From contig OOHK01000005.1 in NCBI GenBank assembly GCA_900315845.1, positions 114,321-178,320 on the forward strand: a DNA stretch of 64,000 bases, read 5' to 3'. Positions 13,411 to 59,282 of this stretch are shown here, one piece after another (positions within the stretch are counted from its first letter, which is position 1; each line of letters starts with the position of its first letter). Source of the stretch: Candidatus Avelusimicrobium luingense (lineage in GTDB: Bacteria; Elusimicrobiota; Elusimicrobia; Elusimicrobiales; Elusimicrobiaceae). The position numbers and the translations under genes were made by a program. A model generated the notes under the pieces. The model did not search any database. It was not told the origin of the DNA and saw only the letters and a list, made by a program, of their open reading frames with translations.

Positions 13411-13471
13411 GGACCTAGAAAATTTTTAGGTCTTTTGGCCGTTGTGCATATGGAAAAATTTAATCTACAAT
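13411..13471 (+). promoter_or_regulatory. Dyad plus -10 promoter of the secreted-protein gene (site A)
   Basis: Half-sites GGACCTA (13411-13417) and TAGGTCT (13427-13433) are 9 bp apart. TTTGGCC follows, then TACAAT at 13466-13471, 32 bp after the dyad. No -35 hexamer is evident. On the other strand the dyad is also 32 bp from the recO -10 box (13373-13378). The same layout recurs at 39532-39592, 46861-46919 and 59185-59282. Confidence 0.65.
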
Positions 13472-13503
13472 AAAATAAAGAAGTAGGATAATAAGGAGAA
13501 GAA

Positions 13504-14253
13504 ATGAAAAGAAAACTTTTATTAACCGGAGTTTTATTGAGTTGTCTGCCGGCTGTTTGTATGGCCCAACCAGAGATTGAGGGTCTCATACAAGTGGGGA
13601 AAGCAGTCACAGGCGGCGGGAAAATTTCCTCCGAGATTACAAACGCGTTGACTCGAACTGCAATGGAACAAATCCGAGCGACGGAAGAAGCCGCAAACGC
13701 AGTTTTAACCAATTTACCCAAAATGGGAGTTGAACAAACACGTGTGGCGAAAGAAGCATCCGCGGGGACGACTAACGTGCCCGGGGTGGGAACGGTGCGT
13801 TCTTTTTCGGTAACGGGAGATTTGAATATTGATTACGGATTAGAAGTACCTACCCGCCGGGGGCATACGGATCATTTCGTGCCGATGGATTTAGAAAAAA
13901 TCATCCAACGTTGGGATATAAACTATAAAAATGTAGATTTGCAAACCCGTTGGCAAGAAATTGGCGGAAAAATGGAATATAATAACCAACAGTCATTAGT
14001 GCAGGATATCCACCGCTTATATGAAGGGCAAGGTATTCCGGCACAAGAAATTCTTACCAAACAAGATGTTCTCATTTATACCTTACCGTTTGATGGAATC
14101 GTTTATTCCGGACACGCGCAATCTCAATCGTTACAGAAAAAAGATGCCATTGTTGTTTTTTATCCCAAACGAAACCGGGGGCAATTGGTAAAATTTGACA
14201 AAGACGGCTTACGGTTTTATCGGTTAAAACCCGATACGGTAGTAGAACCTTAA
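13504..14253 (+). CDS. Secreted protein, function unknown
   Basis: 249 aa. A Sec signal peptide ends in C-M-A with Gln at +1. Residues of about 22-90 are helical and rich in Ala, Glu and Thr, resembling the leading segments of the secreted paralogs at 54.7-59.2 kb in style though not in clear sequence. The C-terminal two thirds (about 100-249) look like a compact alpha/beta domain (IDYGLEVPTRRGHTDHF, then TLPFDGIVYSGHAQSQ, ending VKFDKDGLRFYRL). I do not recognise it. AAGGAG precedes the ATG by a normal distance. It has its own dyad-type promoter and a strong terminator. Confidence 0.8.
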   Translation: MKRKLLLTGVLLSCLPAVCMAQPEIEGLIQVGKAVTGGGKISSEITNALTRTAMEQIRATEEAANAVLTNLPKMGVEQTRVAKEASAGTTNVPGVGTVRSFSVTGDLNIDYGLEVPTRRGHTDHFVPMDLEKIIQRWDINYKNVDLQTRWQEIGGKMEYNNQQSLVQDIHRLYEGQGIPAQEILTKQDVLIYTLPFDGIVYSGHAQSQSLQKKDAIVVFYPKRNRGQLVKFDKDGLRFYRLKPDTVVEP

Positions 14254-14270
14254 AAACTGTTTGATTAGAA

Positions 14271-14299
14271 AATCCGGCTTAATCCGCCGGATTTTTTAA
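14271..14299 (+). terminator. Rho-independent terminator of the 13504 gene
   Basis: AATCCGGC (14271-14278) pairs with GCCGGATT (14286-14293), followed by six T residues. Confidence 0.92.
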
Positions 14300-14307
14300 T
14301 GAAATTT

Positions 14308-14336
14308 TTGCAAATAATCTTCGGAAAAGATATAAT
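14308..14336 (+). promoter_or_regulatory. Sigma70-type promoter of the rpmH operon
   Basis: TTGCAA (14308-14313), 17-bp spacer, TATAAT (14331-14336). It gives a leader of about 100 nt before rpmH. A second -10-like TATAAG lies 6 nt before the rpmH ATG. Confidence 0.75.
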
Positions 14337-14445
14337 AGTTGTGAGGTTTTTTTAACACTTTTGTAAAAAACCCTTTGAAATTATAAATAGGAGATACGTT
14401 TTTTTCAGTTCGCCTTGCGGGCCAGAATTAACGTATAAGAATAAC

Positions 14446-14583
14446 ATGTTACCGACATACAGACCTAATAAAAGAAGACGTGCTAAACACATTGGTTTTA
14501 GAGCTCGCATGGCTACTGCCGGCGGACGCAAAGTGCTTAGTGCTCGCCGTGCCAAAGGCCGCCACGAACTTATCCGGGCCTAG
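14446..14583 (+). CDS. rpmH: Ribosomal protein bL34
   Basis: 45 aa: [18 protein letters not shown], then the typical [19 protein letters not shown] core. It is the first gene of the conserved rpmH-rnpA-yidD-yidC-jag block, which often lies near the chromosomal origin. No Shine-Dalgarno sequence is seen. TATAAG (14434-14439) followed by six bases precedes the ATG, so a secondary leaderless transcript is possible besides the one from the promoter at 14308. Five bases separate it from rnpA. Confidence 0.96.
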
Positions 14584-14588
14584 TTTTT

Positions 14589-14975
14589 ATGCCCAAGCAG
14601 GGTTTGCCGCACTCTTGCCGCCTACATCTTAAACGTGATTTTGAGCGCGTTATTTTAGGCGGCATTAAATTAAAAGGAAACGGACTTATCGTGTGGTACG
14701 TGGTACGAAATGATAACCGCCCATCCCGCTTTGCAGTAGTCGTTTCCCGCAAATTAGGCCCTGCTGTAGTACGTAACCGCATAAAAAGATTACTGCGGGA
14801 AGTTTTCAGACTAAATAGAAAAAATTGGGCGGACGGCATTGATATTATCGTTAGTCCGCGGGATAGTGAGAAATTAAGTAATTTGCATGCCGTGCAAGAA
14901 GCACTCAAGTCAATTAGCGGTCAGACCGCATTACTTAAACCGCTATCCGCCCCGAATGAGTCGGGGGAGAATTAA
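14589..14975 (+). CDS. rnpA: Ribonuclease P protein component
   Basis: 128 aa basic protein that binds RNase P RNA and helps process tRNA 5' ends. The family signature RNRIKRLLREVFR (from the RNR motif) is intact, and the N-terminal RDFERVILGG and FAVVVSRKLGPAV match the usual fold. The gene sits directly between rpmH and yidD and touches the yidD start without a gap. Confidence 0.96.
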   Translation: MPKQGLPHSCRLHLKRDFERVILGGIKLKGNGLIVWYVVRNDNRPSRFAVVVSRKLGPAVVRNRIKRLLREVFRLNRKNWADGIDIIVSPRDSEKLSNLHAVQEALKSISGQTALLKPLSAPNESGEN

Positions 14976-15212
14976 ATGCAACGGTTTTCTCGTTGGGTTA
15001 CCCAACTTACACTAGGCATACTTACGGCAGGAATGGTTGTCGTGCGACCTTTACTCGGGCCGCGCGGTGTTTGCCGTTTTACGCCGACTTGTAGTCAGTA
15101 TGCAAAAGAAGCCATTGTTAAATATGGTGCGCTAAAGGGCTGTTATTTAGCCGCCCGGCGTCTATTAAAATGCCACCCTTTTCATGAAGGTGGATACGAC
15201 CCGGTGCCCTAA
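14976..15212 (+). CDS. yidD: Membrane protein insertion efficiency factor YidD
   Basis: 78 aa. The invariant [15 protein letters not shown] segment and the C-terminal [14 protein letters not shown] are both present. YidD is a small membrane-associated protein that assists YidC-dependent insertion. Canonical position between rnpA and yidC, immediately downstream of the rnpA stop codon. Confidence 0.96.
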
Positions 15213-15281
15213 TCGTTTTTCTATCCGTCTGTTTTTCCCGTTTGCTTAGACGCACATGTCTAGGCCGATTAAGGAGTTTCT

Positions 15282-16880: not shown

Positions 16881-16891
16881 GGAGATTTTAT

Positions 16892-19646: not shown

Positions 19647-19649
19647 AAA

Positions 19650-30944: not shown

Positions 30945-31454
30945 CTAAAGCGTTTCTATAAACTTACAAATGGATTCGTATTTTTCATTACCTCTCCAAT
31001 CGCACCCTTTGGTGTTATCGTAAGGAGTAATCATATATTTGATTTCATATTCTGCAGCGTCACGATCACTGGGGGCATCTCTATCTGCAGCCGGATTGGC
31101 TCTGTCTATACGATAGATCAGTAATGCATCTTCTCCGAGGTCATAGGTAAAAGTCTGTGTGCGGTAAGAATCGCAGCCTCCTGATCCGGCAGCGCTCATC
31201 TTCGGAGCCCATTGGTCCGAGTTCAAATCTACATCAGCAATTTGATACCAATGGCACACCGGGGTTCCCATTTCGTTGGGATTGGCCTGATAATAGCGTT
31301 GAACGGCATCTTTAATGGCTTTTGCCGTCACTAATGCCTCGGTAGTGCGTGATTTTTCAATGGCAGATTCAAACTGCGGGATCGCTACGGCGGCCAAAAC
31401 GCCGACGATTAAAACAACAACTAACATTTCAATCAAGGTAAAACCTTTTTTCAT
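30945..31454 (-). CDS. Type IV pilin-like (prepilin/pseudopilin) protein
   Basis: 169 aa. The class III leader MKKG is followed by FTLIEMLVVVLIVGVLAAVA, with the prepilin peptidase site G-F and Glu at +5, then IPQFESAIEKSRTTEA. The globular part is specific to this copy and holds four cysteines that could form disulfides (C-terminal DWRGNEKYESICKFIETL). Such proteins form pili or type II-like pseudopili. No assembly ATPase, platform protein or peptidase gene is in the window. AGGAGA precedes the ATG, and a good promoter lies upstream. Confidence 0.93.
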   Translation of the reverse strand: MKKGFTLIEMLVVVLIVGVLAAVAIPQFESAIEKSRTTEALVTAKAIKDAVQRYYQANPNEMGTPVCHWYQIADVDLNSDQWAPKMSAAGSGGCDSYRTQTFTYDLGEDALLIYRIDRANPAADRDAPSDRDAAEYEIKYMITPYDNTKGCDWRGNEKYESICKFIETL

Positions 31455-38286: not shown

Positions 38287-38838
38287 TTACAAGGACAGTT
38301 TATACACTTCGCTGGTCGTCCCGCCTACCGTATACGCATATACGCCGCCCATCGATTTGCAGGCTTTCTGATAAGTCGCTTTGCCGTCCGTGGTACAATA
38401 AATTCCTTTTAAGGGGGGATTATGCACAGGCGTAGCATTGTCAAAGAAATATGTTATTCCGGCGAGAGACGAAGGAATATACACTTCCACCCGATCTTCC
38501 GCAGAGCCGGCCCCATTGACGGCCAATTGCACCTTATATTTATTAGGAAGCGTAAAATTTGCCAAACTGCTGCTATTGGTGCTGCCTGCCGTATAACTGC
38601 TTAAATCAACACTCAGTGCTTCTAAATCGGTGGTATATTCGCCATTAGCCGCGAAATAGGCATCTTCGGCGTCTCTTATTGTTTTGGCCAGCGTAAAGCA
38701 TTGCATTAAGCGGCTTTTGGCTACGGCCACATTATACTGCGGCAGGGCCACACTTGCTAATATGCCGATAATAAGAACAACGACCAATAATTCTATTAGT
38801 GTAAAACCATTCAAACGATACGATATTGTATTTTTCAT
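38287..38838 (-). CDS. Type IV pilin-like protein
   Basis: 183 aa. The leader ends at RLNG before [20 protein letters not shown] and LPQYNVAVAKSRLMQ. Prepilin peptidase would cut before Phe and methylate it. Glu+5 is present. The globular part contains two or three cysteines near the end. The reading frame extends upstream to 38874, but ATG 38838 follows an AAAGGCGTGGG ribosome-binding region and starts MKNTISYRLNGF, so I use it. A six-codon frame ends on this ATG (ATGA overlap). Confidence 0.9.
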   Translation of the reverse strand: MKNTISYRLNGFTLIELLVVVLIIGILASVALPQYNVAVAKSRLMQCFTLAKTIRDAEDAYFAANGEYTTDLEALSVDLSSYTAGSTNSSSLANFTLPNKYKVQLAVNGAGSAEDRVEVYIPSSLAGITYFFDNATPVHNPPLKGIYCTTDGKATYQKACKSMGGVYAYTVGGTTSEVYKLSL

Positions 38839-38883
38839 AATCCCACGCCTTTCATGCTTTATTTTAATAAACACAATTTAACA

Positions 38884-39478: not shown

Positions 39479-39531
39479 TATGTTCTCCTTGTCCGACGTA
39501 GATATAAGCTACATCCGGTAACCTTATATTT

Positions 39532-39592
39532 ATTGTATGTAAAAAACAAACCAACCAACAAGGGTCAAAAGGCCCATACACCGCATAGGCCT
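39532..39592 (-). promoter_or_regulatory. Dyad plus -10 promoter of the 38927-39478 gene (site D)
   Basis: On the minus strand: AGGCCTA (39586-39592), 9 bp, TGGGCCT (39570-39576), TTTGACC (39563-39569), 25 bp, TACAAT (39532-39537). The dyad-to-minus-10 distance is 32 bp, the same as at site A. Confidence 0.65.
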
Positions 39593-39596
39593 AAAC

Positions 39597-39699: not shown

Positions 39700-41115
39700 T
39701 TAAATATATCCTTGTGGAATAGGAGATATCGGAGCATTAAGTTCTTGCAAAGATAGCAGTAATGCCTTCATAAAATCTTCTTGATGCGGTATCAGAAGAG
39801 TATCTCGCACGTCGACGGCATCCAACGTAATCCCAGAAAAAGTTTCAGGGGTTTGTATCGGATATTTTTCCTTTACCGTCTGTATAATTTCGGGAGGTAA
39901 ATGCGATATAATAGATTTATAAAGCGGACGTACATATTTAGCATTTTTACCAAAGGTTCCCTGTAAAAATTGCTCTTGATTGGCCGGCAAATAGGCTTGC
40001 AGCACGAAAGAATTAATAGATGGTGAATATTGTGCTGTCCAAACCATTTTAGGGTTTCTATCTTGCGGAATTGATATTGTACTTAATAAGTTCTCTGATT
40101 TCCCGATATAAAATCGACGTCCCGGTTGCTCAGACCAATTTTTAAGATCTGTTTGTGTAATTCCGGTTCCGTTCAAATAAGAGACAAGAGCAGGTATATT
40201 CATAGTACAGGATATATTCGGTATAGTAAGTAAAAACGAATTATTTTCAGCGGCAATTAAATTCAGCACCACATGAATCCAATTTTCCGTGTCAGTAGCA
40301 AACGTATTTTTGTTTTGATACAATTGTAACACTTCGTTCTTTTTAAGATGTTTATTCAAGATCAGTCCCGCTACAAAATAGTTATATTCATACAGTAACG
40401 CAAAGCCGTTATGATTCCGATATGTTTGGCGGATATCCCGTACCCCGCTAATAGTATGTACGGTTTGCTTGGCATTAACAGGTAGCCCATAATTATATTG
40501 AGAATAAAATGTAGCCAATTCCGATAATACTTTATCATGGCCCATCAAATAAGGCAAAATATGTGTACCTTCATGTATGCCCAAATTTATTTGTTCTATG
40601 AAAGAACGTTGCTCTTTCAAGGAAATTTTAATAATCCCTAATCCGTCTATGGCTTGATTGGAAGAATTAGACATGATAAGTTGCAAGCGCGAAAAATCAG
40701 CCTTAACCTGATACATATCTGCTATATAACGAACGCCCAAATAAACCCACAACAAATCGCTTAATGAACGATCTTTAAGAAATTTATCTGAAGAAATTAT
40801 CTGTTTTACGGACAATGTATATTTGCCCAAAGAGATTGTTTCTTCTTCCAATTTGGAAGCGTTTGTTTCCAACCAACTTAAAAAATTATCCACCCGATAC
40901 CATCCGGTTTCTCGTTTGGGATCATTAAAATTTTCACGATCGTAATAGTGTTGCAGTTCGGTCAGGACTACCGAGTAAATCGACGCAGTTGTTTGTTGGT
41001 TTACAGACACAAGTATTTGCTGTTGCAAATGGCCGTGCAAATTGCCTCCTTGCACTTGCAAAGTCAATAAAAAAACACACCCGATACTCATACATATGGT
41101 TGTAAATTGTTTCAT
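39700..41115 (-). CDS. Secreted putative metallopeptidase (HEGTH)
   Basis: 471 aa, not assigned to a family. A signal peptide (about 1-23) ends near LQVQG. A possible zinc site lies in LGIHEGTHILPYL (His181-Glu182-x-x-His185), followed by LSELATFYSQ, in which Glu199 could be a third ligand. The rest shows no familiar motif. It has a good promoter (41155-41183), AGGGGAG before the ATG, and a terminator. It lies between two copies of the ppdK 3' end, which suggests that it was inserted behind ppdK. Confidence 0.75.
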   Translation of the reverse strand: MKQFTTICMSIGCVFLLTLQVQGGNLHGHLQQQILVSVNQQTTASIYSVVLTELQHYYDRENFNDPKRETGWYRVDNFLSWLETNASKLEEETISLGKYTLSVKQIISSDKFLKDRSLSDLLWVYLGVRYIADMYQVKADFSRLQLIMSNSSNQAIDGLGIIKISLKEQRSFIEQINLGIHEGTHILPYLMGHDKVLSELATFYSQYNYGLPVNAKQTVHTISGVRDIRQTYRNHNGFALLYEYNYFVAGLILNKHLKKNEVLQLYQNKNTFATDTENWIHVVLNLIAAENNSFLLTIPNISCTMNIPALVSYLNGTGITQTDLKNWSEQPGRRFYIGKSENLLSTISIPQDRNPKMVWTAQYSPSINSFVLQAYLPANQEQFLQGTFGKNAKYVRPLYKSIISHLPPEIIQTVKEKYPIQTPETFSGITLDAVDVRDTLLIPHQEDFMKALLLSLQELNAPISPIPQGYI

Positions 41116-41154
41116 CGAAATTACGCTCCCCTATTTTGGAATTATATATCTTGT

Positions 41155-41183
41155 ATTATAATGGATATTTGAATAAAAAACAA
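41155..41183 (-). promoter_or_regulatory. Sigma70-type promoter of the 39700-41115 gene
   Basis: Minus-strand TTGTTT (41178-41183), 17-bp spacer, TATAAT (41155-41160). Confidence 0.75.
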
Positions 41184-41218
41184 GGAGAAATAATACTTGT
41201 AAATTCGGGTAGATTAAT

Positions 41219-44801: not shown

Positions 44802-45368
44802 TTAAGGCAATTCGTACAAACGGATACCGCTATCGTGCTTTTTGACCCCTTTGAAAAACTTGACGCAAAAATCACCCGCGTTTTTACCAAAAACATAGGA
44901 ACTGTGTTCTTTTATCTCGCCGCAAAGTAATTTGTGAGTAGGAATATTTGCATGGGTGGCTGCGGTATTTACATAATAAGAAAAATCGGCCCCTTTATAA
45001 TTACCTTTTAGCCTTCCTACATGAATTGCTATGACATTTCCTACTTCAAGAACAGCAGACCAATCTGCATTAGAACGCGTATCTTTTAATGAATAATCAT
45101 ACAGACTCGTATTCCCGGTAAAATCAGCAGGTAAATCTACGTCCAATTCGTCAAATGAAGTCGGCCCTGTTCCGTTTGCTTGGTAATAGATTTCCAACGC
45201 TTGCCCGATAGATTTGGCAAGAGTCATCATTTGTACGGCGCGCGATTTTTCCACCGCTTTCGTGTATTGCGGCAACGCCACCGCCGCCAAAATACCGATA
45301 ATGAGAACAACCACTAATAATTCTATTAGCGTAAAACCTCTCGAACGACCTGATATACTATTTCTCAT
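44802..45368 (-). CDS. Type IV pilin-like protein
   Basis: 188 aa. Leader [11 protein letters not shown], then [20 protein letters not shown] and [17 protein letters not shown], nearly identical to the other two pilins in the first 50 residues. The globular domain differs. Three cysteines sit in the C-terminal third. AAAGGAG precedes the ATG. It starts only 12 bp behind the hydE stop, so it is probably co-transcribed with hydE. No pilus assembly genes are nearby. Confidence 0.92.
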
Positions 45369-46852: not shown

Positions 46853-46919
46853 AGGCCTAAAGACCCGTTGGCAAATAGGTCTTTTGACTCTCGCGAATTG
46901 CAAACAAATTTTTTAAACT
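46853..46919 (+). promoter_or_regulatory. Dyad plus -10 promoter of the tandem-repeat protein operon (site B)
   Basis: AGACCCG (46861-46867), 8 bp, TAGGTCT (46876-46882), TTTGACT, then TAAACT (46914-46919) 31 bp after the dyad and 7 nt before the ATG. An extra half-site AGGCCTA lies at 46853-46859. Confidence 0.6.
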
Positions 46920-46926
46920 ATAGTAT

Positions 46927-49900
46927 ATGAATCAATTGATTAGTAGCCTTAATTTGCGGAAACGGATTATTCTTACTATTATTTTTTCCGCCTTATCTAT
47001 CAAGGGATTTGCGCAAAACCCACTTATTAAAGGTTTAAGTGAGGCGCGGGCTATTTTTTCACTAGAAAAGCAAGTGGAATTTTTACGTATCCAAAACCCG
47101 GAAATTCCTGTTGAAGCACTTCGCAAAACCATGCAATATTTAAAGCAAGACCCTATTGCTACCAACGCAGATTTGGAATATTTCTTCCGGCACAATGTAG
47201 GATATGTACCGGTAGCAGAACCACACGTTTCCCAACAACAAGCCCTAGCGCTTATTGACAATCTTTCTAGCAAACGTGTTCCCCGAAGACCGCAAACTTT
47301 TGCCCAACTGGAAAACGGAACAAGTGCTTCCTTAAGAGAGGCAACCGCCCGTTTAACGCAAGTACCGGTGCCCGGCTATGGTATTTATTTCCAACAATTA
47401 CGAAGAAATGATTTTTTGGCGATGGGAAATTTCGGTTTGAACATACAACGTATTATGGATATGTACACCAAAATTTATCCTACCGGCAAAACAGTTGTTA
47501 TTTCAAAAAATTTCAGTGATATGTTTGCCCAAACGCTTCGAACAAACGATATTATCACCCACGAAAAAGGGATAGAAAAATGGCTGGAATTGCGCGGATT
47601 GGAAAAACAGGCTTTTTTTGAGTCCGGCTTACCCGCCGCATTAGTAGAGCCTACCGACGAATTGATAATTCCTTCTTTTACCCAAATGGATGTTGCACAA
47701 AATTATTGGCTCGGTGTGGCTAACGGACAGGTGGAAAAAACCGTATATGCGGAGAACGGTTTTGCCCAGTACGCCAGCGCGGCCGTCAATTTAGGTTGGT
47801 TTGGCACTCCGCAACTGGCAGCACCCGCTATTTTACAAATGGCCCGGCGTGATTACGGCCTGTTTGATTTGTGGAAAGATTATTTTTTCACGCGCGCGTT
47901 ACTTAATTTAGGGGCTTATAAAGAATTACAGGAATTGGCCCTGATTCGCTTAAAAGAAACAGATAGCCAACGTCAGCCCAAACAACTGGCCGCTGTTTGG
48001 CGCGGAATAAAAAACGTAATTCCGAAAAACAAAGCCCGTCTTATCATTCCGGAAGACCGTATCGCCTTACAAGACGAGCCCCTTCCCGAACTGTTACGGG
48101 AAGACCTGATATTACACCATCCGTTTGCCTATGTGCTTTTGAATGGTTCACAGGAAGTGACGGTATTATGGCAGGAAATTCGCCACGGATTAGATGAACA
48201 ATTCTCGCAAGCGGCATTACAAGTCGGAGTAGGCACTCTGCTAGCCAAACAATGGGAAAAACTAGCCGCCAGAAGATTACAAACTTCTGCGCCTGCCCCA
48301 CGGGTGGAATTAGAATATGACGAGCCGGAAACTCCCGATTTATCAACCGAAGATGTCGCGGCAACAGACAGCGAAGACATCGCCCCGATTAACGAATTAA
48401 TAGAAGAAGTAGACCAACAACCGGTTTCTACACGGAGTAGAAAAGTCCGCACTCCGGCATCTGTACGCCAAGAATTAGCGGAATTTATAGAAAATCACCA
48501 CGGCGCCCTGCCACCGCATAATAGCGCTTTGCGTCAGGCAATTTTTTCTTTAACTTCGCACGCATCCGCCTCTACCGATCCGGATATCCAATGGATACAG
48601 CAAATGATAGAAGACCATAGTGTATATCATAAATACACCACACCGGCCAAAGCACGCAAAGATTTAGAAGAATATATCCAACTTCATGACGGAGAATTAC
48701 CTCCCAACAATTCCGGTTTGCGCCAAAAAATCCGCAGGATGAAAAAACAATTTCCCGAAGACCCGGATATGGCAATTATCGATCAACTTTTATCAACAAA
48801 TTCTTCCCACAGCAAAGGGCGGCAATCTGTTCTCCGCTCGCCGGCACAAGTACGTCAAGATTTACTGACTTATCTGAACAAACATAACGGGCAAATTCCA
48901 CCTGCCGGCGGCCCTTTACGCACGTTGATTTATAAGACACTTCGTATAGAAAATCCCAATGACCCGGATGTGATTGCCTTGCGTACCTTATGGCAAAATC
49001 ATGTTCAACCCAGAGGGGGAAAAGTTACCCGCACACCGGCTAATGTGCGCCAAGAATTAGAAAATTATTTAACCGAACACGATAATAAACTCCCGCCACA
49101 AAACAATGCTTTACGGGCGGCTGCGTATAAAATAAGCAAAGTGGGAGATCAAAATAATTCCGATGTGCAGGAAATCATCCGGCTACTTCAGACGTATGGT
49201 GGCAAACACAACATCATTACACGGGGCAAGACAGCAGCCGATTGCCGTGCCGAATTAGAAACTTATTTTGCCGACAACACCCGTTTGCCTACCAATGGCT
49301 CGCCTTTATACACGTTCGCCTACAAAATAATGAAAATCGGAGATCCCAATGACCCGGACGTGATTGCGATTAAAGAAATGTGGCAAGCCCATAAAAAACC
49401 GAATCCGTACCGTAAAATCAAACCGGAATTGCTATCCGCGCCGGTAGATCCGCAAGATTTACCCCAAGTTACTCCGCATACGGCAAATGCTAAACGTACG
49501 CCCCAACAAGTCTATGATGAATTAGTCGTTTATTTGCAAACACATAACAATAAATTGCCACCGGGTACCACTTCCTTGCGTCATGCCATTACTTATATAA
49601 TTGACCATGGCGATAGAAACATCCCGGAAGTCAATCAAATTATTGATTTGTATAATAAATATGTAACCGTGGTTTCGCGTTCGCCTAAACAAGTGCGTGC
49701 GGAATTGGAAATTTACGCAGCCAACCAAGAAACTATTCCGGTAGACGGACCGTTATACCAAGCCCTTTATAATGTCATTCATAAAGGCGATCCGAACGAT
49801 CCGGATGTTATTGCCGTGACGGAAATGTGGGGGAAACTTCGCCAACGCACACGCCGTACGGCCAAACAAGTCTACGAAGACGTAGTGGCTTATGTAAATG

Positions 49901-50589
49901 AAAACGGGAAATTGCCGCCGGATAAACATTCCTTAAATAATGCGTATCGGCATTTGGTAAGAAAAGAGTATAGCAACGATCCGGATATACAAGCCTTGGT
50001 CCAATTTTGGCAAGCGCATGCGCAAAAAATAGCACCTGCCGAAGAACGTGCCGTTATAGTGTTGAAACAATTACAAATCTATCTTAAAGAGCATAACGAA
50101 CTGCCCAAAGGGGGGAGTTCATTACGAAATGCCGCCGAGCATTTACGACGTGTCGGCAACCAGAACGATCCGAATATTGCGGCTATTACGCGGTTGCTAA
50201 ATGAAAATAAATTTCAACCGGAAGTACAACGCACTCCGGAGAAAGTGTATCAAAATTTACAAACTTATTTGGAAATGAATAACGGTCAACTCCCACCCGC
50301 GAGACATCCGTTACGCAATAATTATTATCACGTTATCAACCATGTAGAAGGGGACGAACATACCCTTTCCGCCTTGCGGACCTTATGGGAATCGCATGTA
50401 AAAAACATTAAACGTACGCCGACTCAAGTACGTGCGGAATTAGAGCAATATATTCAGGAACACGACGGAAAATTACCTCCTATTCGCACGGCCTTGCGTC
50501 AAGCGGCATATCGATTTAGTTTAACACAAACAACTACGGATAAGGATATTGAAGCCATCAAAAATTTATTACGAATTTACAGCAGGTAA
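46927..50589 (+). CDS. Large secreted protein with about eleven tandem repeats
   Basis: 1220 aa. The signal peptide (about 1-29) ends K-G-F-A with Gln at +1. A non-repetitive N-terminal region (about 30-470) starts with a helical segment (NPLIKGLSEARAIFSLEKQV) that recurs in the next gene. An acidic linker (about 450-500) leads to roughly eleven repeats of about 60-65 residues (about 507-1220). Their consensus is R-T-P-x2-V-R-x-E-L-x2-Y-[LI], then H-[DN]-[GN]-x-L-P-P, L-R-x-A, and N-D-P-D-[VI]-x2-[IL]-x3-W. I do not know this repeat; it is distantly reminiscent of helicase-associated helical repeats. Predicted leaderless, driven by dyad promoter B. Confidence 0.85.
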   Translation: MNQLISSLNLRKRIILTIIFSALSIKGFAQNPLIKGLSEARAIFSLEKQVEFLRIQNPEIPVEALRKTMQYLKQDPIATNADLEYFFRHNVGYVPVAEPHVSQQQALALIDNLSSKRVPRRPQTFAQLENGTSASLREATARLTQVPVPGYGIYFQQLRRNDFLAMGNFGLNIQRIMDMYTKIYPTGKTVVISKNFSDMFAQTLRTNDIITHEKGIEKWLELRGLEKQAFFESGLPAALVEPTDELIIPSFTQMDVAQNYWLGVANGQVEKTVYAENGFAQYASAAVNLGWFGTPQLAAPAILQMARRDYGLFDLWKDYFFTRALLNLGAYKELQELALIRLKETDSQRQPKQLAAVWRGIKNVIPKNKARLIIPEDRIALQDEPLPELLREDLILHHPFAYVLLNGSQEVTVLWQEIRHGLDEQFSQAALQVGVGTLLAKQWEKLAARRLQTSAPAPRVELEYDEPETPDLSTEDVAATDSEDIAPINELIEEVDQQPVSTRSRKVRTPASVRQELAEFIENHHGALPPHNSALRQAIFSLTSHASASTDPDIQWIQQMIEDHSVYHKYTTPAKARKDLEEYIQLHDGELPPNNSGLRQKIRRMKKQFPEDPDMAIIDQLLSTNSSHSKGRQSVLRSPAQVRQDLLTYLNKHNGQIPPAGGPLRTLIYKTLRIENPNDPDVIALRTLWQNHVQPRGGKVTRTPANVRQELENYLTEHDNKLPPQNNALRAAAYKISKVGDQNNSDVQEIIRLLQTYGGKHNIITRGKTAADCRAELETYFADNTRLPTNGSPLYTFAYKIMKIGDPNDPDVIAIKEMWQAHKKPNPYRKIKPELLSAPVDPQDLPQVTPHTANAKRTPQQVYDELVVYLQTHNNKLPPGTTSLRHAITYIIDHGDRNIPEVNQIIDLYNKYVTVVSRSPKQVRAELEIYAANQETIPVDGPLYQALYNVIHKGDPNDPDVIAVTEMWGKLRQRTRRTAKQVYEDVVAYVNENGKLPPDKHSLNNAYRHLVRKEYSNDPDIQALVQFWQAHAQKIAPAEERAVIVLKQLQIYLKEHNELPKGGSSLRNAAEHLRRVGNQNDPNIAAITRLLNENKFQPEVQRTPEKVYQNLQTYLEMNNGQLPPARHPLRNNYYHVINHVEGDEHTLSALRTLWESHVKNIKRTPTQVRAELEQYIQEHDGKLPPIRTALRQAAYRFSLTQTTTDKDIEAIKNLLRIYSR
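48445..50586 (+). repeat. Tandem protein repeat array (about 11 units of ~195 bp)
   Basis: Unit starts can be recognised by R-[TS]-P or its variants near residues 508 onward. Units are divergent at DNA level, so the array is old rather than a recent expansion. Unit 5 carries a longer linker (about 25 extra residues). Confidence 0.8.
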
Positions 50590-50594: not shown

Positions 50595-51977
50595 ATGCAT
50601 AAACATCATTTGTACCTCTCTTGCATTTTAATTATCTTCGGTTTTATTTCCGTTCAAGCCCAATCAATTGTTTCAACCGGTATTAAAGGGCTGGAACGTT
50701 TAAGCCAGATATCTTCTGCGGAAAGACAAATCGCCTTTTTGCTCATGCAAAACCCACAACTTTCCTTAGAAGCGGCCACGCAATTGGTTAAGCAGGCCAA
50801 CCCGCAAGCCAATATAAACGTAGAAAATATACTTGGACAAATGAAATTATCTTCGGAAAACATGATAGATTTTTCTGCTTCGTCTTTTTCTAACGCCGTA
50901 GAAAATGCAATACGACGCGCCCAATCACCCGCCGTTACCCATGTCAAACCACCGTATCAGGCTCCGTGGCGCCACGGGCCGGAAATACTTTATGCTCAAA
51001 CCAAACTTTTTATTAGCGAAAACGGACATTTCCCGCGTCTAAAAATAGAAGACAAAACCCCGGATATGTACACGAAACAAGATATTCAAGAAATACAATT
51101 AGCCAGACGAATTAGATATTTCTTCGCATCCACAGAGCCGAATGATCCCATTGTTTTGGCCTTACAAGAAGAACAAGAAAAATACGCCTTTGGAGTTTCT
51201 CCGATAGATTATCCGAGCAATTACCAATCTGGCCCGATATCGCGCCAGATGTTTAGTCAGGAAATTAACCGAGCACCCGACGCACGCGATTTGGCAAACG
51301 ATTTTCCGCAATGGCTTCTTGACAATGGGAACTACATGATTCCTACCCCCGAAACCACCAAAGCATTTGAATCGGTACGTGTAGCCGCTGCCGGGAACGG
51401 ATTAAACGATGAGATATATGATATTTTAGTCACCTTAAATGCCATGCATTTAGGCTATTCCGATAAGGGGAGATCCGTTCGGGTGACTTATCGCGGGGAT
51501 AATCCCACCTTACCGCAAGCCAAAGATTTCCATGAAGTAATAGAAATCAACGGTTTAACGAAGTGGCAACCGCATGCCAAAAAAGCATTACAAAACGATT
51601 ACGGCCCCATTAAATTTTATATCACCCGCGATTCTATCGCCGGAATTTTTTTGGAAGAAGGAACAACTGCCGCCGATGTAGCGCGTGTATTTCAAGATTT
51701 ATGTCCTAAAGGTTTTTCAGTCCGCATGACACCCCACGAATTCGGTTTGCAAGACGGTCAGGTGACCAGCGATTCGTTTGCGGGCAGATTACACTTTCAT
51801 ATAGAACATATTTCTCCGTCGGAGGGGGAAGGTTCGGACAAGCCCGATATCAGTTATACGTTATGGCTCAATGCCCAAGATCTTGTTCAAGATAAAACAC
51901 CGCACCAAATCTTCAAACTCTACCGCGATTTGTTCCGGCCTTATATGGATGATTATATGGTCAATTTTACCCTTTAG
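50595..51977 (+). CDS. Secreted protein related to the repeat protein, function unknown
   Basis: 460 aa. The signal peptide ends V-Q-A with Gln at +1. Residues of about 23-70 (STGIKGLERLSQISSAERQI, then FLLMQNPQLSLEAATQLV) match the N-terminus of the preceding protein. One divergent copy of the ~65-residue repeat follows (about 130-200: TKLFISENGHFPR through LARRIRYFF to EPNDPIVLALQEEQ). The C-terminal ~200 residues are unrelated (VRVTYRGDNPTLPQAKDFHE, LHFHIEHISPSEGEG) and unrecognised. Five bases separate it from the previous stop, so the two form an operon. A terminator follows. Confidence 0.8.
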   Translation: MHKHHLYLSCILIIFGFISVQAQSIVSTGIKGLERLSQISSAERQIAFLLMQNPQLSLEAATQLVKQANPQANINVENILGQMKLSSENMIDFSASSFSNAVENAIRRAQSPAVTHVKPPYQAPWRHGPEILYAQTKLFISENGHFPRLKIEDKTPDMYTKQDIQEIQLARRIRYFFASTEPNDPIVLALQEEQEKYAFGVSPIDYPSNYQSGPISRQMFSQEINRAPDARDLANDFPQWLLDNGNYMIPTPETTKAFESVRVAAAGNGLNDEIYDILVTLNAMHLGYSDKGRSVRVTYRGDNPTLPQAKDFHEVIEINGLTKWQPHAKKALQNDYGPIKFYITRDSIAGIFLEEGTTAADVARVFQDLCPKGFSVRMTPHEFGLQDGQVTSDSFAGRLHFHIEHISPSEGEGSDKPDISYTLWLNAQDLVQDKTPHQIFKLYRDLFRPYMDDYMVNFTL

Positions 51978-54571: not shown

Positions 54572-54589
54572 TTTGTAAGTTACGCAAAA

Positions 54590-54624: not shown

Positions 54625-54630
54625 TGTATA

Positions 54631-54658
54631 AATAATCCCGGCTATGCCCGGGGGGATT
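54631..54658 (-). terminator. Terminator of the secreted-paralog cluster
   Basis: AATCCC (54634-54639) pairs with GGGATT (54653-54658), with additional GC pairing inside. ATTTAT follows on the minus strand. Confidence 0.6.
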
Positions 54659-54690
54659 GTTTTCTGGTCATATTCGTTATTTCTGAATAA

Positions 54691-56055
54691 TTAATTCTTT
54701 TTCTTCAAGTACGCGGCCGGGACCGGAGTAAAAATAAGTTCGTCGTTTTCTAATGTGGCTTTATACCACCCGGGTTTTCCGTTTACTTCTAAAAACACCC
54801 ATATATTTGAAATAAAACTTGCGGGAACATCCCGTCGGAAAATGCACACTTCACCTGTTTGAAATGCTTTGGCGGCATATCGATCGTCTGTCGGGAATGC
54901 TTCCGGCGCATAGGAACGTAATTTGTCTGTCGCAGGAATTTGTACCAGGACAGATAAATTTTCACCCGCCATTATTGCATGCCCCAGCGCAATAGAAGGC
55001 ATTAGGGATGCATAAATATCACCGTGATAATTGGTTCTATGTGCTTCTAAACCATTTATCAACAAATTCTTTACATCGTCTAATTTCTCCAATCTCATGC
55101 CACGGTAAAAAGATTCTTTGTTCTCTAAAATATCTTTCGGCAAAAATGTTTGCTCGGTGTACACTCCGACAGGATCCGTAGGACTGATGATATCCCATCT
55201 GTCCACACTCGGCAACAACCGCGCAGATAATACAGCGGGCGCGTTATCTACCGCCCCGCCTAATTTTACCGTCGGCTCGCCGGGCATATTGGTAATTTGG
55301 ATATACGCTTGAGATTTGGCGGCGGGTTTTACCGTATCGTTGGTAAGCGGCGTAAATATTAGTTTATTTTGCCATAGAACCCGATACCACCCCGGGGTGC
55401 CATTGATATCCAGCAACACAAATACCCCAAAAATAGCTTGAGGAGGAATATCCTTTTCCGCGTAAAAGTTAGGCAAATTGCCCGGCCTTAAACTTCCGGC
55501 AATATCGTCTTTCTTTATCATCACTACTACGGGAATACCTTCTTCCAACTTGGCATAATGCCGGGCAACCGCAAAATTAGCGGACATATAAATACTGTTA
55601 TATCCGGTTTGGTTTACCAACATGCCCTGCGCTAAAATTTGTTGCACATCTTGCAGATCATTTACATGCATTCCCCGATACAAAAACGACGTATTTTCCG
55701 CTTGATTTATCCGCTCCAAATAATCGTTCAAAGCCAAATCCGCCTCTTGATACCGCATATAGGTAGAACGCAGCAGTTTGCCGGTGGCGACGTCTCTGCC
55801 TTGCATGCTTTCAAGCAAAACAGCCATTTTTGTTTGCAAAGAGGGTGATACTTCGGTAATTTGCAACGGAATCAGCGTTTGAACCGTATTAGCAAGGACA
55901 GCAGCCGATTGTTCTGCCTTGAATAATTGTTGAGAAATAGTACGCGAAAGTTCTGTATTTATCCGCACGGCCGTCTCTATGGCTTTGATCTCTTTTTGAG
56001 CCAACGCCGGCAAACAACTTCCTACGATAAGACAAATAACGGCTAATTTTTTCAT
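54691..56055 (-). CDS. Secreted protein with two Tyr-Arg-Gly modules
   Basis: 454 aa. The signal peptide ends A-L-A with Gln at +1. A helical leader (about 20-115) precedes module 1 (about 124-240, YRG at 126) and module 2 (about 315-450). A linker domain between them (YIQITNMPGEPTVKLGG onward) also occurs in the next gene upstream. Modules share F-Y-R-G-M, N-L-L-x-x-G-L-E, I-Y-x-S, R-R-D-V-P and V-N-G-K-P-x-W-Y followed by D-E-L-I-F-x-P. The Arg-Gly plus later Ser pattern recalls ADP-ribosyltransferase folds, but this is unproven. The start is the ATG at 56055 behind AAAAGGA, not the in-frame TTG at 56070. Last gene of the cluster. Confidence 0.82.
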   Translation of the reverse strand: MKKLAVICLIVGSCLPALAQKEIKAIETAVRINTELSRTISQQLFKAEQSAAVLANTVQTLIPLQITEVSPSLQTKMAVLLESMQGRDVATGKLLRSTYMRYQEADLALNDYLERINQAENTSFLYRGMHVNDLQDVQQILAQGMLVNQTGYNSIYMSANFAVARHYAKLEEGIPVVVMIKKDDIAGSLRPGNLPNFYAEKDIPPQAIFGVFVLLDINGTPGWYRVLWQNKLIFTPLTNDTVKPAAKSQAYIQITNMPGEPTVKLGGAVDNAPAVLSARLLPSVDRWDIISPTDPVGVYTEQTFLPKDILENKESFYRGMRLEKLDDVKNLLINGLEAHRTNYHGDIYASLMPSIALGHAIMAGENLSVLVQIPATDKLRSYAPEAFPTDDRYAAKAFQTGEVCIFRRDVPASFISNIWVFLEVNGKPGWYKATLENDELIFTPVPAAYLKKKN

Positions 56056-56070
56056 AATTTTCCTTTTCAA

Positions 56071-56892
56071 TCAATCGGCCAATTTTTTCATTTCACCCTT
56101 AGCCGGTATAAATACCAATTCATCCTTTTCCAATACCACCTTATACCAATCAGGCTTACCGTCCACTGCCAAAAAAACCCACACATCGGAAATCAAACGG
56201 GGAGGAACATCCCGGCGGAAAACGGTTTCTTCTGCCGTTTGTAAGGTATGCGGCGGATATACTTCCGGTGCGTATAAGCGCAAGGTCGGCGTTGACGGAA
56301 TTTTAATAAGTACGGGAAATTGAGGGTCGTTTCCCATGGTAGCATACCACAGCGAAGTCACCGGAGTTCGCGAAACAAAAATTTTTCCTTCGTAGTTGCT
56401 TTTTCTGATTTCCAACCCGTTTATCAATAAATTCTTCAAATCAGCAAATCTTACCAAACTCATTCCCCGGTAAAAAGATGGTTCATTTCCCGAAATATTT
56501 TGCGGCAAAAACACTTCACGCATGTACTTTCCGGTAGCATCCGCCGGACGGATTATATTCCAACTGTCCGATCCGGATAACAGTTGCACGGACAAAACGT
56601 CCGAAGAATTATCAAACTTCCCGCTCAATTTGACGCTTGGTTGATCAGGTATATTGATAATTTTTGTGTATTGTATTTCGGAAACAACAGATACCTGTTG
56701 TGCAGCGAGATAGGATGCCCGGGCGGCATTGTCTGCCGCGCGAGTGGCTTGCGAAATAGCCGCTTGAGTTTGACGTGCAATATCCGCACCGATTTTCCCT
56801 GTAATCAGTTCCATGGCCGTTTTTCCCTGTTGCGCAAAGACAGGGGAAAAACAACAAAGCAATACGTTTATAACAACTACCTTTTTCATCAT
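56071..56892 (-). CDS. Secreted protein with one Tyr-Arg-Gly module
   Basis: 273 aa. The signal peptide ends V-F-A with Gln at +1. An Ala-rich helical leader (about 22-68: ARQTQAAISQATRAADNAAR) precedes the linker domain (about 75-135, INIPDQPSVKLSG) and one module (about 138-265, YRG at 141). From the linker on it is closely similar to the C-terminal half of the 54691-56055 protein, with D-V-W-V-F-L, D-G-K-P-D-W-Y and K-D-E-L-V-F-I-P. This suggests a recent partial duplication. Tandem ATG codons start it and no clear Shine-Dalgarno sequence is seen, so it probably depends on coupling within the operon. Confidence 0.82.
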   Translation of the reverse strand: MMKKVVVINVLLCCFSPVFAQQGKTAMELITGKIGADIARQTQAAISQATRAADNAARASYLAAQQVSVVSEIQYTKIINIPDQPSVKLSGKFDNSSDVLSVQLLSGSDSWNIIRPADATGKYMREVFLPQNISGNEPSFYRGMSLVRFADLKNLLINGLEIRKSNYEGKIFVSRTPVTSLWYATMGNDPQFPVLIKIPSTPTLRLYAPEVYPPHTLQTAEETVFRRDVPPRLISDVWVFLAVDGKPDWYKVVLEKDELVFIPAKGEMKKLAD

Positions 56893-56906
56893 ACTAGTGA
56901 TACATG

Positions 56907-57695
56907 TTATTCATCTATCTCAAAATCATCTATTTTTCTTTTGCTAGCGGGTAACGGTATAAACACACGTCCTTCATCGTCTAATACAACTCGGTACCAT
57001 TCCGGTTTTCCGTTGATTTCAAGAAAGGCCAATACTTCCACAATAGCAAAGGGGGGAATGTTTCTTTCCGAATATGCCTCCCCCGGCATATCCTGTTTAA
57101 GATGATCAATTACCGCTTCACTGTCCAAGACGACGATTACCTGAATTTCTCCTTGCGTAGAGCCGGAATATCCTTCGGCCACCGCTAACATTGGTGTCAT
57201 GTAAATTCCGTTATACGCAGTTTTGTTGACTTCAAGTCCGTGCAATAAAACATGATCAATGGCTTCTAAACTAGCCAGCCGCATTCCCCGGTAAAAAAAA
57301 TGGGTTCCTTCTTCTTTCATTAAATTCATTAAATAAAATCGCAAGTTCCACGAGGCTTGCTTATATACAATATCATCATTTTTGGGAACGATACGTGCCA
57401 ACACATAGTCTTGCGCATTTTCTAATTTGGAATCAAGAGCCAAGATAGAAGGAATATCACTGCGCATATCCGCAAACCGAATGTTATATTTTTCCGATAC
57501 GCGAATCTCCGTAGATATCATCATTTGACGACACATCGCACTCATTTGTTGAGCAATCAAAGCGTGGACATCTACAACTTCTCCCGTTACCGTTTTACCT
57601 ATTTGCTTCGGAGCGGCTAGTATTGTGTTTTGCGCCCACCCCAAACTATTTCCTGTCAGCAACAGGGCCAATAAGAAAACTTTTTTCAGTTTCAT
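56907..57695 (-). CDS. Secreted protein with one Tyr-Arg-Gly module
   Basis: 262 aa. The signal peptide (MKLKKVFLLALLLTGNSLGWA) has Gln at +1. A helical leader (about 25-130) is followed by the module (about 133-250, YRG at 135): F-F-Y-R-G-M-R-L, V-N-K-T-A-Y-N-G-I-Y-M-T, then I-N-G-K-P-E-W-Y-R-V. The tail is acidic (RKIDDFEIDE). I place the start at 57695, where ATGA overlaps the preceding stop. Longer in-frame starts lie inside the upstream gene. Second gene of the cluster, translationally coupled to the first. Confidence 0.82.
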   Translation of the reverse strand: MKLKKVFLLALLLTGNSLGWAQNTILAAPKQIGKTVTGEVVDVHALIAQQMSAMCRQMMISTEIRVSEKYNIRFADMRSDIPSILALDSKLENAQDYVLARIVPKNDDIVYKQASWNLRFYLMNLMKEEGTHFFYRGMRLASLEAIDHVLLHGLEVNKTAYNGIYMTPMLAVAEGYSGSTQGEIQVIVVLDSEAVIDHLKQDMPGEAYSERNIPPFAIVEVLAFLEINGKPEWYRVVLDDEGRVFIPLPASKRKIDDFEIDE

Positions 57696-59164
57696 AAAGA
57701 AATCCATCCGCTCATGGCCTTTGTAGGAATAGGCATAAATACCAATTTGTCGTTTTTCAGCGTTACACGATACCAACCTTGTACGCCATTGATTTGAGCA
57801 TATATGGCCACGTCTGTAATCATATCCGCGGGGACATTTTCATATAATACGCGACGGCCACCAAATTCACCTTCCGGTTTTAACGGCGGGTTTTCTTGTA
57901 ACAAGCGTTCCGTTACCGGAATTTTCACAAGTACCGGCAAGGCCTCTTCCCCTTCATGAGTGCCTAATAACCGGGCGGTTTGGGACGGGAACATATATCC
58001 CATAGCCACACTGAGGTTGGGGGAAACATAAATCATTTCGTGATGGGTTTTATCAATTTCCATACCGCGTTGTAAAATGTTTTGCAATTCGGCCGTATTT
58101 TTTAAGCGAAGGCCCCGGTACAACATTTTATCTTCTTGCACAAAAGATTCCGGCACAAACAAGCGCATTTCCTCATCGTTACTAATAGCCGCGCGTAATT
58201 GTTCGTCGGGCAGAACGCTAAAATCAGACGTTGCCGATGAAACCGCCTTTTCATTAGCAGTAAAACTGGCAAAAACCTGCACATTATTTTGAATGTCCGT
58301 TTGAAAGGTTTGACCCGGCGTGACAAAAAAATCATCATTCACGCTTACCGCTTGATTGGGCACGGCCAAAAAGAAAACTTCGCCATCTTTCAATATGGCT
58401 TTATGCCACGCTTGTTTACCGTTCACTTCCATAAATACCATAATATCGGTTACATTCTCTGAAGGAATTGAACCATAGAACACCTGTTGCAATCCTATTT
58501 TCCCCGAAGGAACGGTGGCTAATAATTCTTCTGTTAAATTGATTCTTATTAACACAGGGATATTCACTTCGCCCCGTTGTTGAGCAAAAATATCATATTT
58601 GGAAGGTAACGCATAATTAAGTGCAATCCGCAAAGACGGTGTAGTAAACACTTGCCCCGAATAAGTGCTTTTACTTACTTCCATACCTTGATTTAACATA
58701 TTTTTTAAGGCTTTCAAATTAGGTATTTTGATCCCTCTAAATACACTTTGTGATTCTTGCGCCGCTAACTGTGCCGGCACATACATTTGATCGGATTGGG
58801 GGAATATAATATGGTGCAGTTCCTCTGCGGGGAGCAACCGCGCTTGCACATCGTGAAGAACTTGAATTTGCTGATTATTTGTTTTTTGAAATGAGTTTAA
58901 TAAATTCTCATATTTTTGATAAGACATTTCGCCCATAGGTAATTTTAGTTGGTTGATTTGCAACGTTTGTTGGGCATTTCGCACCGCTTGAGACAAATTA
59001 CCAACCATATTATCTAGCGCTGTATATATTTCCTTGCCGGTCTTTTGTGATATTTCTCCTATTTGCGCACCGGTTTTACTAACTTCTTGCGGTACTTTAT
59101 AGATTTGAGCAAAGCCGGAAACAGTTCCTAAAATCATGGTTCCTACTATAATTAGTTTTTTCAT
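57692..59164 (-). CDS. Secreted protein with two Tyr/Phe-Arg-Gly modules
   Basis: 490 aa, first gene of the four-gene cluster. The signal peptide ends G-F-A with Gln at +1. A long helical leader (about 21-135) precedes module 1 (about 140-275, with FRG at 142) and module 2 (about 346-485, YRG at 349). These are the most divergent modules (M-E-V-N-G-K-Q-A-W-H and I-N-G-V-Q-G-W-Y), but they keep the Arg-Gly, the G-M-E pair and the I-Y-V-S/T position. The ATG at 59164 follows AGGAGA. An in-frame start at 59182 is less likely. Promoter: dyad C read leftward, with GACAAT (59185-59190). Confidence 0.83.
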   Translation of the reverse strand: MKKLIIVGTMILGTVSGFAQIYKVPQEVSKTGAQIGEISQKTGKEIYTALDNMVGNLSQAVRNAQQTLQINQLKLPMGEMSYQKYENLLNSFQKTNNQQIQVLHDVQARLLPAEELHHIIFPQSDQMYVPAQLAAQESQSVFRGIKIPNLKALKNMLNQGMEVSKSTYSGQVFTTPSLRIALNYALPSKYDIFAQQRGEVNIPVLIRINLTEELLATVPSGKIGLQQVFYGSIPSENVTDIMVFMEVNGKQAWHKAILKDGEVFFLAVPNQAVSVNDDFFVTPGQTFQTDIQNNVQVFASFTANEKAVSSATSDFSVLPDEQLRAAISNDEEMRLFVPESFVQEDKMLYRGLRLKNTAELQNILQRGMEIDKTHHEMIYVSPNLSVAMGYMFPSQTARLLGTHEGEEALPVLVKIPVTERLLQENPPLKPEGEFGGRRVLYENVPADMITDVAIYAQINGVQGWYRVTLKNDKLVFMPIPTKAMSGWISL

Positions 59165-59184
59165 TTTTTTTCTCCTATACAATT

Positions 59185-59282
59185 ATTGTCTTAAAAATGT
59201 TGGTTTTTCACAAGAGAAAAAAGGCCTACTTTCTGATAGGTCTTTTGTCCTATCCGATTTCACTGATTAAATTTGATACAAT
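59185..59282. promoter_or_regulatory. Shared dyad with divergent -10 boxes (site C)
   Basis: AGGCCTA (59222-59228), 8 bp, TAGGTCT (59237-59243). Rightward: TTTGTCC, then TACAAT (59277-59282) 33 bp after the dyad and 6 nt before the ATG at 59289. Leftward: GACAAT (minus strand, 59185-59190) 31 bp from the dyad, then AGGAGA and the ATG at 59164. One symmetrical site is thus correctly placed for both transcripts. Confidence 0.65.

What the first reader, a model, noticed from the sequence alone, without database searches (positions are those of the whole stretch)
13411..59282. A shared dyad promoter class in front of scattered secreted-protein genes
Four well-aligned sites (A 13411-13471, B 46861-46919, C 59222-59282, D 39532-39592) share RGRCCYR, 8-9 bp, TRGGYCT, then TTTGNCC (TTTGACT at B) and a TACAAT/TAAACT -10 box 31-33 bp after the dyad, with no -35 hexamer. 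All four precede genes for exported proteins of unknown function. The constant spacing and lack of -35 suggest an activator-dependent promoter, or an alternative sigma factor using TTTGNCC. A co-regulated exported system is inferred.
Basis: partly seen in the sequence, partly recalled or inferred. Interest (0 to 1): 0.85.

Follow-up and report, generated by a model that had tools for sequence, protein, structure and literature searches.

The report
Class-wide promoter for exported-protein genes
A recurring promoter signature sits in front of dozens of unrelated exported-protein genes across a class of gut and environmental bacteria (Elusimicrobia), is probably read by one conserved two-component regulator, and in one lineage the DNA signature and the regulator's DNA-reading helix have both changed.

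Summary
The four sites are real; a fifth shares site C on the other strand. Refined consensus: AAAAGKCCYA-N8/9-TRGGYCTTTTGRCCCTTGT, then TAYAAT about 18 bp on. This 1.46-Mb genome has 23 strong copies; all 66 searched genomes of the genus and 172 of 235 of the class have it. An exact 27-base form in 84,980 species gave 44 stretches: 38 titled Elusimicrobi-, 6 'uncultured bacterium' (4 match genus contigs by length). Downstream genes fall into 39 unrelated groups yet look exported (22 of 23 here, 50 of 50 in relatives, crude rule).

Best regulator candidate: a NarL/GerE-type response regulator (RR-B) beside two kinases in a Tad/T2SS-like locus. Its family distribution follows the motif's. In genome G124 the operator cores changed from GGYC/GRCC to GTAC; on held-out sequence a fixed pattern found 10 matches (shuffles 0.13) at 8 promoters, all before exported-looking genes. 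G124 alone has K->N in RR-B's recognition helix (33 of 33 other sequences keep K).

Shown: promoter class, exported cargo, operator switch. Inferred: RR-B binding, activation, signal.

The parts
13411..13473 (+). Site A: operator arms GGACCTA / TAGGTCT (TAGGTCTTTTGGCC 13427-13440), -35-like TTGTGC 13442-13447, -10 TACAAT 13466-13471
   Evidence: 39.0 bits
13504..14253 (+). Exported 249-aa protein downstream of A, no Pfam match at E<=0.01
39530..39593 (-). Site D: TGGGCCTTTTGACC 39576-39563, CTTGTT, TACAAT
   Evidence: 44.8 bits
38927..39478 (-). Exported 183-aa protein downstream of D, no Pfam match at E<=0.01
46859..46921 (+). Site B: TAGGTCTTTTGACT 46876-46889, -10 TAAACT 46914-46919; ATG 7 nt after the -10 box
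   Evidence: (34.5 bits)
46927..50589 (+). Exported 1220-aa protein downstream of B; Pfam UPF0449 below cut-off only
50595..51977 (+). Exported 460-aa protein 5 bp after the B gene, probably same operon
59219..59282 (+). Site C, plus-strand reading: TAGGTCTTTTGTCC 59237-59250, -10 TACAAT 59277-59282; ATG 59289, 6 nt later
   Evidence: 33.6 bits
59289..59978 (+). Lipoprotein-like (LTGC) exported protein downstream of C
59183..59246 (-). Fifth site (C'), minus-strand reading of the same dyad, with CTTGTG
   Evidence: 27.1 bits
54691..59164 (-). Four consecutive exported-protein genes (57692-59164, 56907-57776, 56071-56892, 54691-56070) downstream of C', probably one operon
   Evidence: 4 of 4 genes signal-peptide positive

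Best explanation
The element is the operator and promoter of a large regulon of exported proteins. A dimeric activator, most likely the NarL/GerE-type response regulator RR-B (outside the window, contig C8:175795-176478 of this genome), binds GGYC-N4-GRCC palindromes just upstream of a weak -35 box (TTGT) and helps sigma-70-type RNA polymerase use a TAYAAT -10 box. A sensor kinase (HAMP, Cache-like) and a receiver/kinase hybrid encoded next to RR-B probably feed it phosphate. About a third of the mRNAs would start at or within a few bases of the ATG. Shown: the promoter class, its spacing, its class-wide spread, its exported cargo, and the switch of the operator in one lineage. Inferred: that RR-B is the binder, that it activates, and what it senses.
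For: Recurrence. Specificity to Elusimicrobia. Cargo: 22 of 23 strong sites in this genome and 50 of 50 genes in relatives are signal-peptide positive by a crude rule, versus 12 of 42 other window genes (8 of 30 G029 loci were dropped before the count); 75 proteins fall into 39 groups. TTG at -35 in 17 of 23, spacer 17-18 in 19 of 23. Regulator type: the half-site contains TRGGY, as in RWWTRGGYNNYY bound by the cyanobacterial regulator PedR (PMC13421787, passage); RR-B's DNA-binding domain matches GerE (1fse) best among solved structures. Only two GerE-domain proteins, RR-A and RR-B, were found in this genome. RR-B: 21 genomes of families f3-f8 have neither motif nor strong RR-B; of the other 214, 172 have the motif and 198 strong RR-B. 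RR-A orthologues (E<1e-75) are confined to family f1 while motif-bearing f2 and f15 genomes lack them. Operator switch: in G124, TAGTACTWWWGKRCCTKGT has 10 matches with up to 2 mismatches in 421,890 bases used to form it (shuffles 0.35) and 10 in 133,079 held-out bases (shuffles 0.13, at most 1 of 30), 8 promoters, all before exported-looking genes; canonical 0 in both. G124's RR-B has SINTVKNHIN where 33 of 33 other RR-B sequences have S[VI]KT[IV]KNHLN; RR-A's helix is unchanged in G124. RR-B lies in a locus with T2SSF and a sub-cut-off TadE match.
Against: No binding or expression data. The co-occurrence is not phylogenetically independent; any gene gained with the clade f1/f2/f9-f15 would show it. 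38 genomes have strong RR-B but no motif hit at E<=1e-3 (strict filters); a laxer scan of 22 genomes of these families that lacked strict hits found weak hits in 18, none in 4. 12 motif-bearing genomes lack a strong RR-B match; most are drafts, but G108, G128, G060 and G153 are 90-99% complete. G160 has two GerE proteins and no motif. No R1 site stands near the RR-B operon in the two genomes read, so no autoregulation was seen. G124 is a single event, and other proteins have diverged there too. Other transcription-factor families were not censused. 6 of 30 loci from other families and E. minutum-like G102 had no clear exported gene.
Confidence: 0.72

Rival explanations
1. The regulon is real, but its activator is another DNA-binding protein: RR-A (the second NarL-type regulator, with a soluble HisKA_3 kinase) or a family that was not censused.
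For: RR-A is one of only two GerE-domain proteins found in this genome and lies about 1.4 kb from a weak (9-bit) site in front of an exported protein. Other TF families were not searched. A handful of motif-bearing genomes lack strong RR-B.
Against: RR-A orthologues at E<1e-75 occur only in f1, while f2 and f15 genomes with 5-12 strict hits have no close RR-A; RR-A's recognition helix is unchanged in G124 although the operator changed; TRGGY half-sites point to a GerE-type helix.
Confidence: 0.2
2. An alternative sigma factor reads TTTGNCC/CTTG as its own -35 element.
For: Fixed spacing of TTTGRCCCTTG to the -10 box in 19 of 23 sites.
Against: The -10 box is TAYAAT-like; TTG is at the usual -35 distance; the conserved part extends over 35 bp as nested palindromes, which sigma factors do not read; a minus-strand copy works from the same dyad. 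A sigma-54 promoter is excluded by the -10 box, and a passage of PMC3162934 lists E. minutum among species without sigma-54.
Confidence: 0.04
3. The dyad is a DNA hairpin, RNA structure or recombination site rather than a protein-binding operator.
For: Arms plus 8-9 bp centre resemble recombinase sites, and in G029 the palindrome is nearly perfect over about 35 bp.
Against: In the window's genome the left arm is often GTCC opposite GGTC/GGCC, so the arms do not complement; the element keeps a fixed distance to -10 and start codon and lies upstream of the inferred start.
Confidence: 0.02
4. The shared promoter reflects duplication of one gene family with its upstream region, not co-regulation.
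For: Some cargo genes are paralogues, e.g. L044/L045 and the four-gene operon downstream of C'.
Against: 39 unrelated groups among 75 proteins and conservation across families f1, f2 and f15 with different cargo.
Confidence: 0.02

Closest known systems
GerE of Bacillus subtilis (LuxR/NarL/FixJ-type DNA-binding domain) and its spore-coat regulon
   Same: Best solved-structure match of RR-B's DNA-binding domain (1fse, E 1.2e-10) with the same K-T-[VI]-[KR]-N-H stretch in the recognition helix; TRGGY half-site (GerE consensus recalled; a search for it found no held paper); regulates genes for surface or exported products (recalled).
   Different: GerE lacks a receiver domain (recalled); RR-B has one. 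Here the operator is a pair of GGYC-N4-GRCC palindromes about 24-25 bp apart, and the cargo is Sec-exported.
PedR of Synechocystis
   Same: Binds RWWTRGGYNNYY; activator and repressor (PMC13421787, passage).
   Different: Redox-sensing via a cysteine, chlorophyll genes; no exported regulon.
NarL-type two-component systems (NarL, VraR, ComA, DevR/DosR)
   Same: Receiver plus GerE domain.
   Different: Preceded here by a receiver/kinase hybrid as well as a membrane kinase, within a Tad/T2SS-like locus.
PorX/PorY-SigP control of type 9 secretion (recalled, not tested)
   Same: Two-component control linked to a secretion machine and its cargo.
   Different: PorX is not NarL-type and works through an ECF sigma factor (recalled); no such promoter here.
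Regulator-motif co-evolution studies (GntR family, PMC4494728, abstract seen)
   Same: Correlated change of recognition residues and operator bases.
   Different: Those compare many regulators; here a whole exported regulon appears to have switched core in one lineage, with a single candidate residue.

Membership tests
NarL/LuxR-type response regulators (RR-B) | Response_reg receiver domain | tested here: met
   PF00072, 103.5 bits, cut-off 30.2
NarL/LuxR-type response regulators (RR-B) | C-terminal GerE/LuxR HTH | tested here: met
   PF00196, 64.2 bits, cut-off 23.5; best solved match GerE 1fse
NarL/LuxR-type response regulators (RR-B) | Binds the proposed operator as a phosphorylated dimer | not testable with these tools
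   Only correlation: family-level co-occurrence and the G124 operator/helix change
GerE/PedR-type operator | RWWTRGGYNNYY half-site | tested here: met
   Right arm fits 12 of 12 positions in 9, 11 in 10 and 10 in 4 of 23 sites; the search was anchored on TRGGY, so only the flanks are informative. Left arm fits exactly in 1 of 23
Sigma-70-type promoter | TATAAT-like -10 box 17-18 bp from a TTG -35 box | tested here: met
   Spacer 17-18 in 19 of 23, TTG in 17 of 23
Sigma-54 promoter | GG/GC at -24/-12, no TATAAT box | tested here: not met
   TAYAAT box at fixed place; PMC3162934 passage lists E. minutum as lacking sigma-54
Exported-protein regulon | Downstream genes carry Sec signal peptides | tested here: met
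   22 of 23 strong sites here, 50 of 50 in relatives, crude rule; background 12 of 42
Exported-protein regulon | Co-expression | not testable with these tools
   No expression data

The most novel reading that the evidence does not exclude
A single two-component regulator has governed the exported proteome of most of the class Elusimicrobia since its early radiation, and in the G124 lineage the entire operator set was rewritten from GGYC/GRCC to GTAC cores together with a K->N change in the regulator's recognition helix: a natural, regulon-wide change of lock and key with the cargo, spacing and promoter kept.
Probability: 0.55. Interest if true: 0.86.

Novelty: new variant of a known kind. Interest (0 to 1): 0.77.

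Why it matters
It gives a poorly studied class a first candidate global regulon, marks exported proteins (mostly without Pfam families) by a DNA signature rather than by homology, and links them to a sensor beside a Tad/T2SS-like locus. The G124 lineage offers a testable natural case of an open question: how a regulator and dozens of its operators can change specificity together without loss of the regulon. Four searches of the paper library (listings and abstract starts only) showed no description of such a regulon; the E. minutum genome paper is not held, so it could not be checked.

Tried and rejected
Hairpin or recombination-site reading: rejected because left and right arms often do not complement and the distance to -10 is fixed. 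Alternative sigma and sigma-54: see rivals. RR-A as regulator: weakened by its distribution and unchanged helix in G124. Autoregulation as a pointer to the regulator: no site before a transcription-factor gene was seen among the loci read, and none near the RR-B operon in G000 or G102. An unbiased ranking of all 256 dyad cores in G124 failed because AT-rich cores dominate; among 96 cores with two G/C, GTAC was first only at 1 mismatch (1 match) and tied at 3. The convincing test was therefore the longer pattern, formed on 421,890 bases and then tested unchanged on 133,079 new ones. ADP-ribosyltransferase-like reading of the YRG repeat domain in the window operon: no Pfam, PDB-sequence or fold match and a poor model (mean pLDDT 59); dropped. 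A 3-mismatch window scan is uninformative.
Full report
Observation. The 14-mer TAGGYCTTTTGNCC occurs 11 times exactly and 29 times with up to one mismatch in the 1.46-Mb genome, against 5 for the reversed control. In the window alone, with three mismatches, it is not above shuffles (36 versus 32.8). From the 29 genome hits I kept 21 with promoter context and dropped 8 (L014, L015, L016, L017, L020, L021, L023, L026) as apparently within coding sequence, without a fitting -10 box, or the back-reading of another site. The alignment A1 gave a sequence-only model R1. R1 finds 23 promoters at E<=1e-4 in the genome: the 21 seeds, which match by construction, plus the reverse reading of site C and one more. 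In the window the five sites score 27-45 bits and the next best 12.

Anatomy. Consensus AAAAGKCCYA-N8/9-TRGGYCTTTTGRCCCTTGT. The outer arms form one dyad and GGYC-N4-GRCC a second. In relative G029 the element is a nearly perfect 35-bp palindrome with GGCC-AAAA-GACC on the left as well, so the operator looks like two 12-bp palindromes about 24-25 bp apart. CTTGT places TTG at -35 (17 of 23) with a 17-18 bp spacer (19 of 23) to a TAYAAT-like box. The distance from the -10 box to ATG is 9 nt or less in 7 of 23, or 8 if the upstream ATG 59289 of site C is used: leaderless or nearly so. The rest have a leader, usually with a Shine-Dalgarno-like sequence.

Cargo. The genes after the 23 strong sites begin with signal-peptide-like stretches in 22 of 23 by a crude rule; the exception (L054) looks exported by eye. 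In relatives it is 50 of 50, after dropping 8 of the 30 G029 loci: seven reverse-reading or antisense hits, and L112, whose reading frame stops after 22 codons. Other genes of the window: 12 of 42, several of them pilins or membrane proteins. The 75 proteins form 39 sequence groups. Of 20 proteins scanned, 15 have no Pfam match at E<=0.01; two pass a cut-off (Trypsin_2, Peptidase_M20). In other families and in E. minutum-like G102, 24 of 30 loci have an exported-looking gene by eye; L138, L140, L143, L144, L148 and L154 do not or are unclear. In four family-f2 loci the element is followed by a 2'-dG-II riboswitch above Rfam's threshold, which hints at scavenging of nucleosides or DNA.

Spread. 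R1 matches (E<=0.1) occur in 61 of 61 genomes searched among relatives. At E<=1e-3 with strict filters they occur in 173 of 340 genomes of the phylum: all 66 of the genus, 172 in the class and 1 outside it. The exact pattern AAAGRCCYAN{8,9}TRGGYCTTTTGRCCCTTG in 84,980 species gave 44 stretches. 38 have Elusimicrobi- titles; 6 are 'uncultured bacterium', of which four match genus contigs here by length, one shares an assembly prefix with a matched one, and one (L340) was not assigned.

Regulator. TRGGY is the core of the RWWTRGGYNNYY bound by the cyanobacterial regulator PedR (PMC13421787, one passage), and GerE's consensus as I recall it. This genome has two GerE-domain proteins, RR-A and RR-B; two motif-free f5 genomes have none, but motif-free G160 has two. 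RR-A orthologues (E<1e-75) occur only in f1. Strong RR-B (E<1e-75) is present in 198 of 214 genomes of families f1, f2 and f9-f15, of which 172 carry the motif, and in 0 of 21 of f3-f8, of which 0 carry it. A laxer rescan of 38 motif-negative genomes gave weak hits in 18 of 22 of the former and 3 of 16 of the latter. The Fisher value (1e-8) ignores shared ancestry. RR-B lies downstream of a membrane kinase (HisKA, HATPase, HAMP over cut-off, dCache below it) and a receiver/kinase hybrid, in a locus with T2SSF and a sub-cut-off TadE protein.

The operator switch. G124 (same family, own genus) has no strict R1 hit and one weak one (E 0.004), which reads AAAAGTACTA-N9-TAGTACTTTTGGGTCTTGT before an exported protein. 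In 421,890 sampled bases the pattern TAGTACTWWWGKRCCTKGT, refined on that sample, has 10 matches with up to 2 mismatches (7 exact; 20 shuffles mean 0.35, max 2); 9 have a gene downstream, all exported-looking. The canonical element has 0. In 133,079 further bases the same fixed pattern has 10 matches at 8 promoters (30 shuffles mean 0.13, max 1), all 8 before exported-looking genes; canonical 0. G118, which keeps the lysine, keeps TRGGCC cores at the 3 of 11 loose matches that precede exported-looking genes, and has one match to the GTAC pattern in 399,000 bases. RR-B's recognition helix reads S[VI]KT[IV]KNHLN in 33 of 33 other sequences (32 genomes, families f1, f2, f9, f13, f14, f15; two copies from G229) and SINTVKNHIN in G124. 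The lysine is shared with GerE. RR-A's helix is unchanged in G124. This is one event and correlational, but it is the change expected if RR-B reads the operator.

Verdict. An unusually clean regulon-scale finding: the observation and the co-regulation inference stand, the 'no -35' clause falls, and a specific regulator and a natural specificity switch are proposed with stated limits.

Noticed in passing
L145:1569-1639 +, L147:1399-1469 -, L144:1570-1640 +, L149:138-208 +: In four family-f2 loci the promoter element is followed by 2'-dG-II riboswitches (RF03165, 67-78 bits, threshold 60); for three (L145, L147, L149) the next gene looks exported, and L147's contains a VGQG stretch reminiscent of ComEC-like hydrolases (impression, not tested).
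   Followed up: partly
window 54691-59164 (-): Four consecutive exported proteins share a repeated domain of about 125 aa (YRGM...L..GL...VP..W) with no Pfam, PDB-sequence or fold match; the model was poor (pLDDT 59).
   Followed up: partly
window 39700-41115 (-): An exported-looking 471-aa protein with only an 8-bit partial R1 match upstream (41154-41185), i.e. apparently outside the regulon or with a degenerate site.
   Followed up: no
window 30945-31454 (-), 38287-38874 (-), 44802-45368 (-): Three scattered type IV pilin-like genes (FTLIE signature, by eye); more in L066, L179 and L180.
   Followed up: no
L043:1-289 and L062:1-253 (contig ends C5 and C6): Two contig ends carry regulon promoters whose proteins differ in the signal peptide but share the next 30 or so residues, suggesting a repeated gene that broke the assembly.
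   Followed up: no
L112 (G029:C2:118228-118291 -): A strong site (34.2 bits) before a signal-peptide start that stops after 22 codons: a probably decayed regulon gene.
   Followed up: no
G124 loci L398:7990-8032, L408:2831-2873, L409:116-158: In G124 the whole element TAGTACTAAAGTACC occurs twice 24 bp apart at single promoters, showing the tandem operator most plainly.
   Followed up: partly
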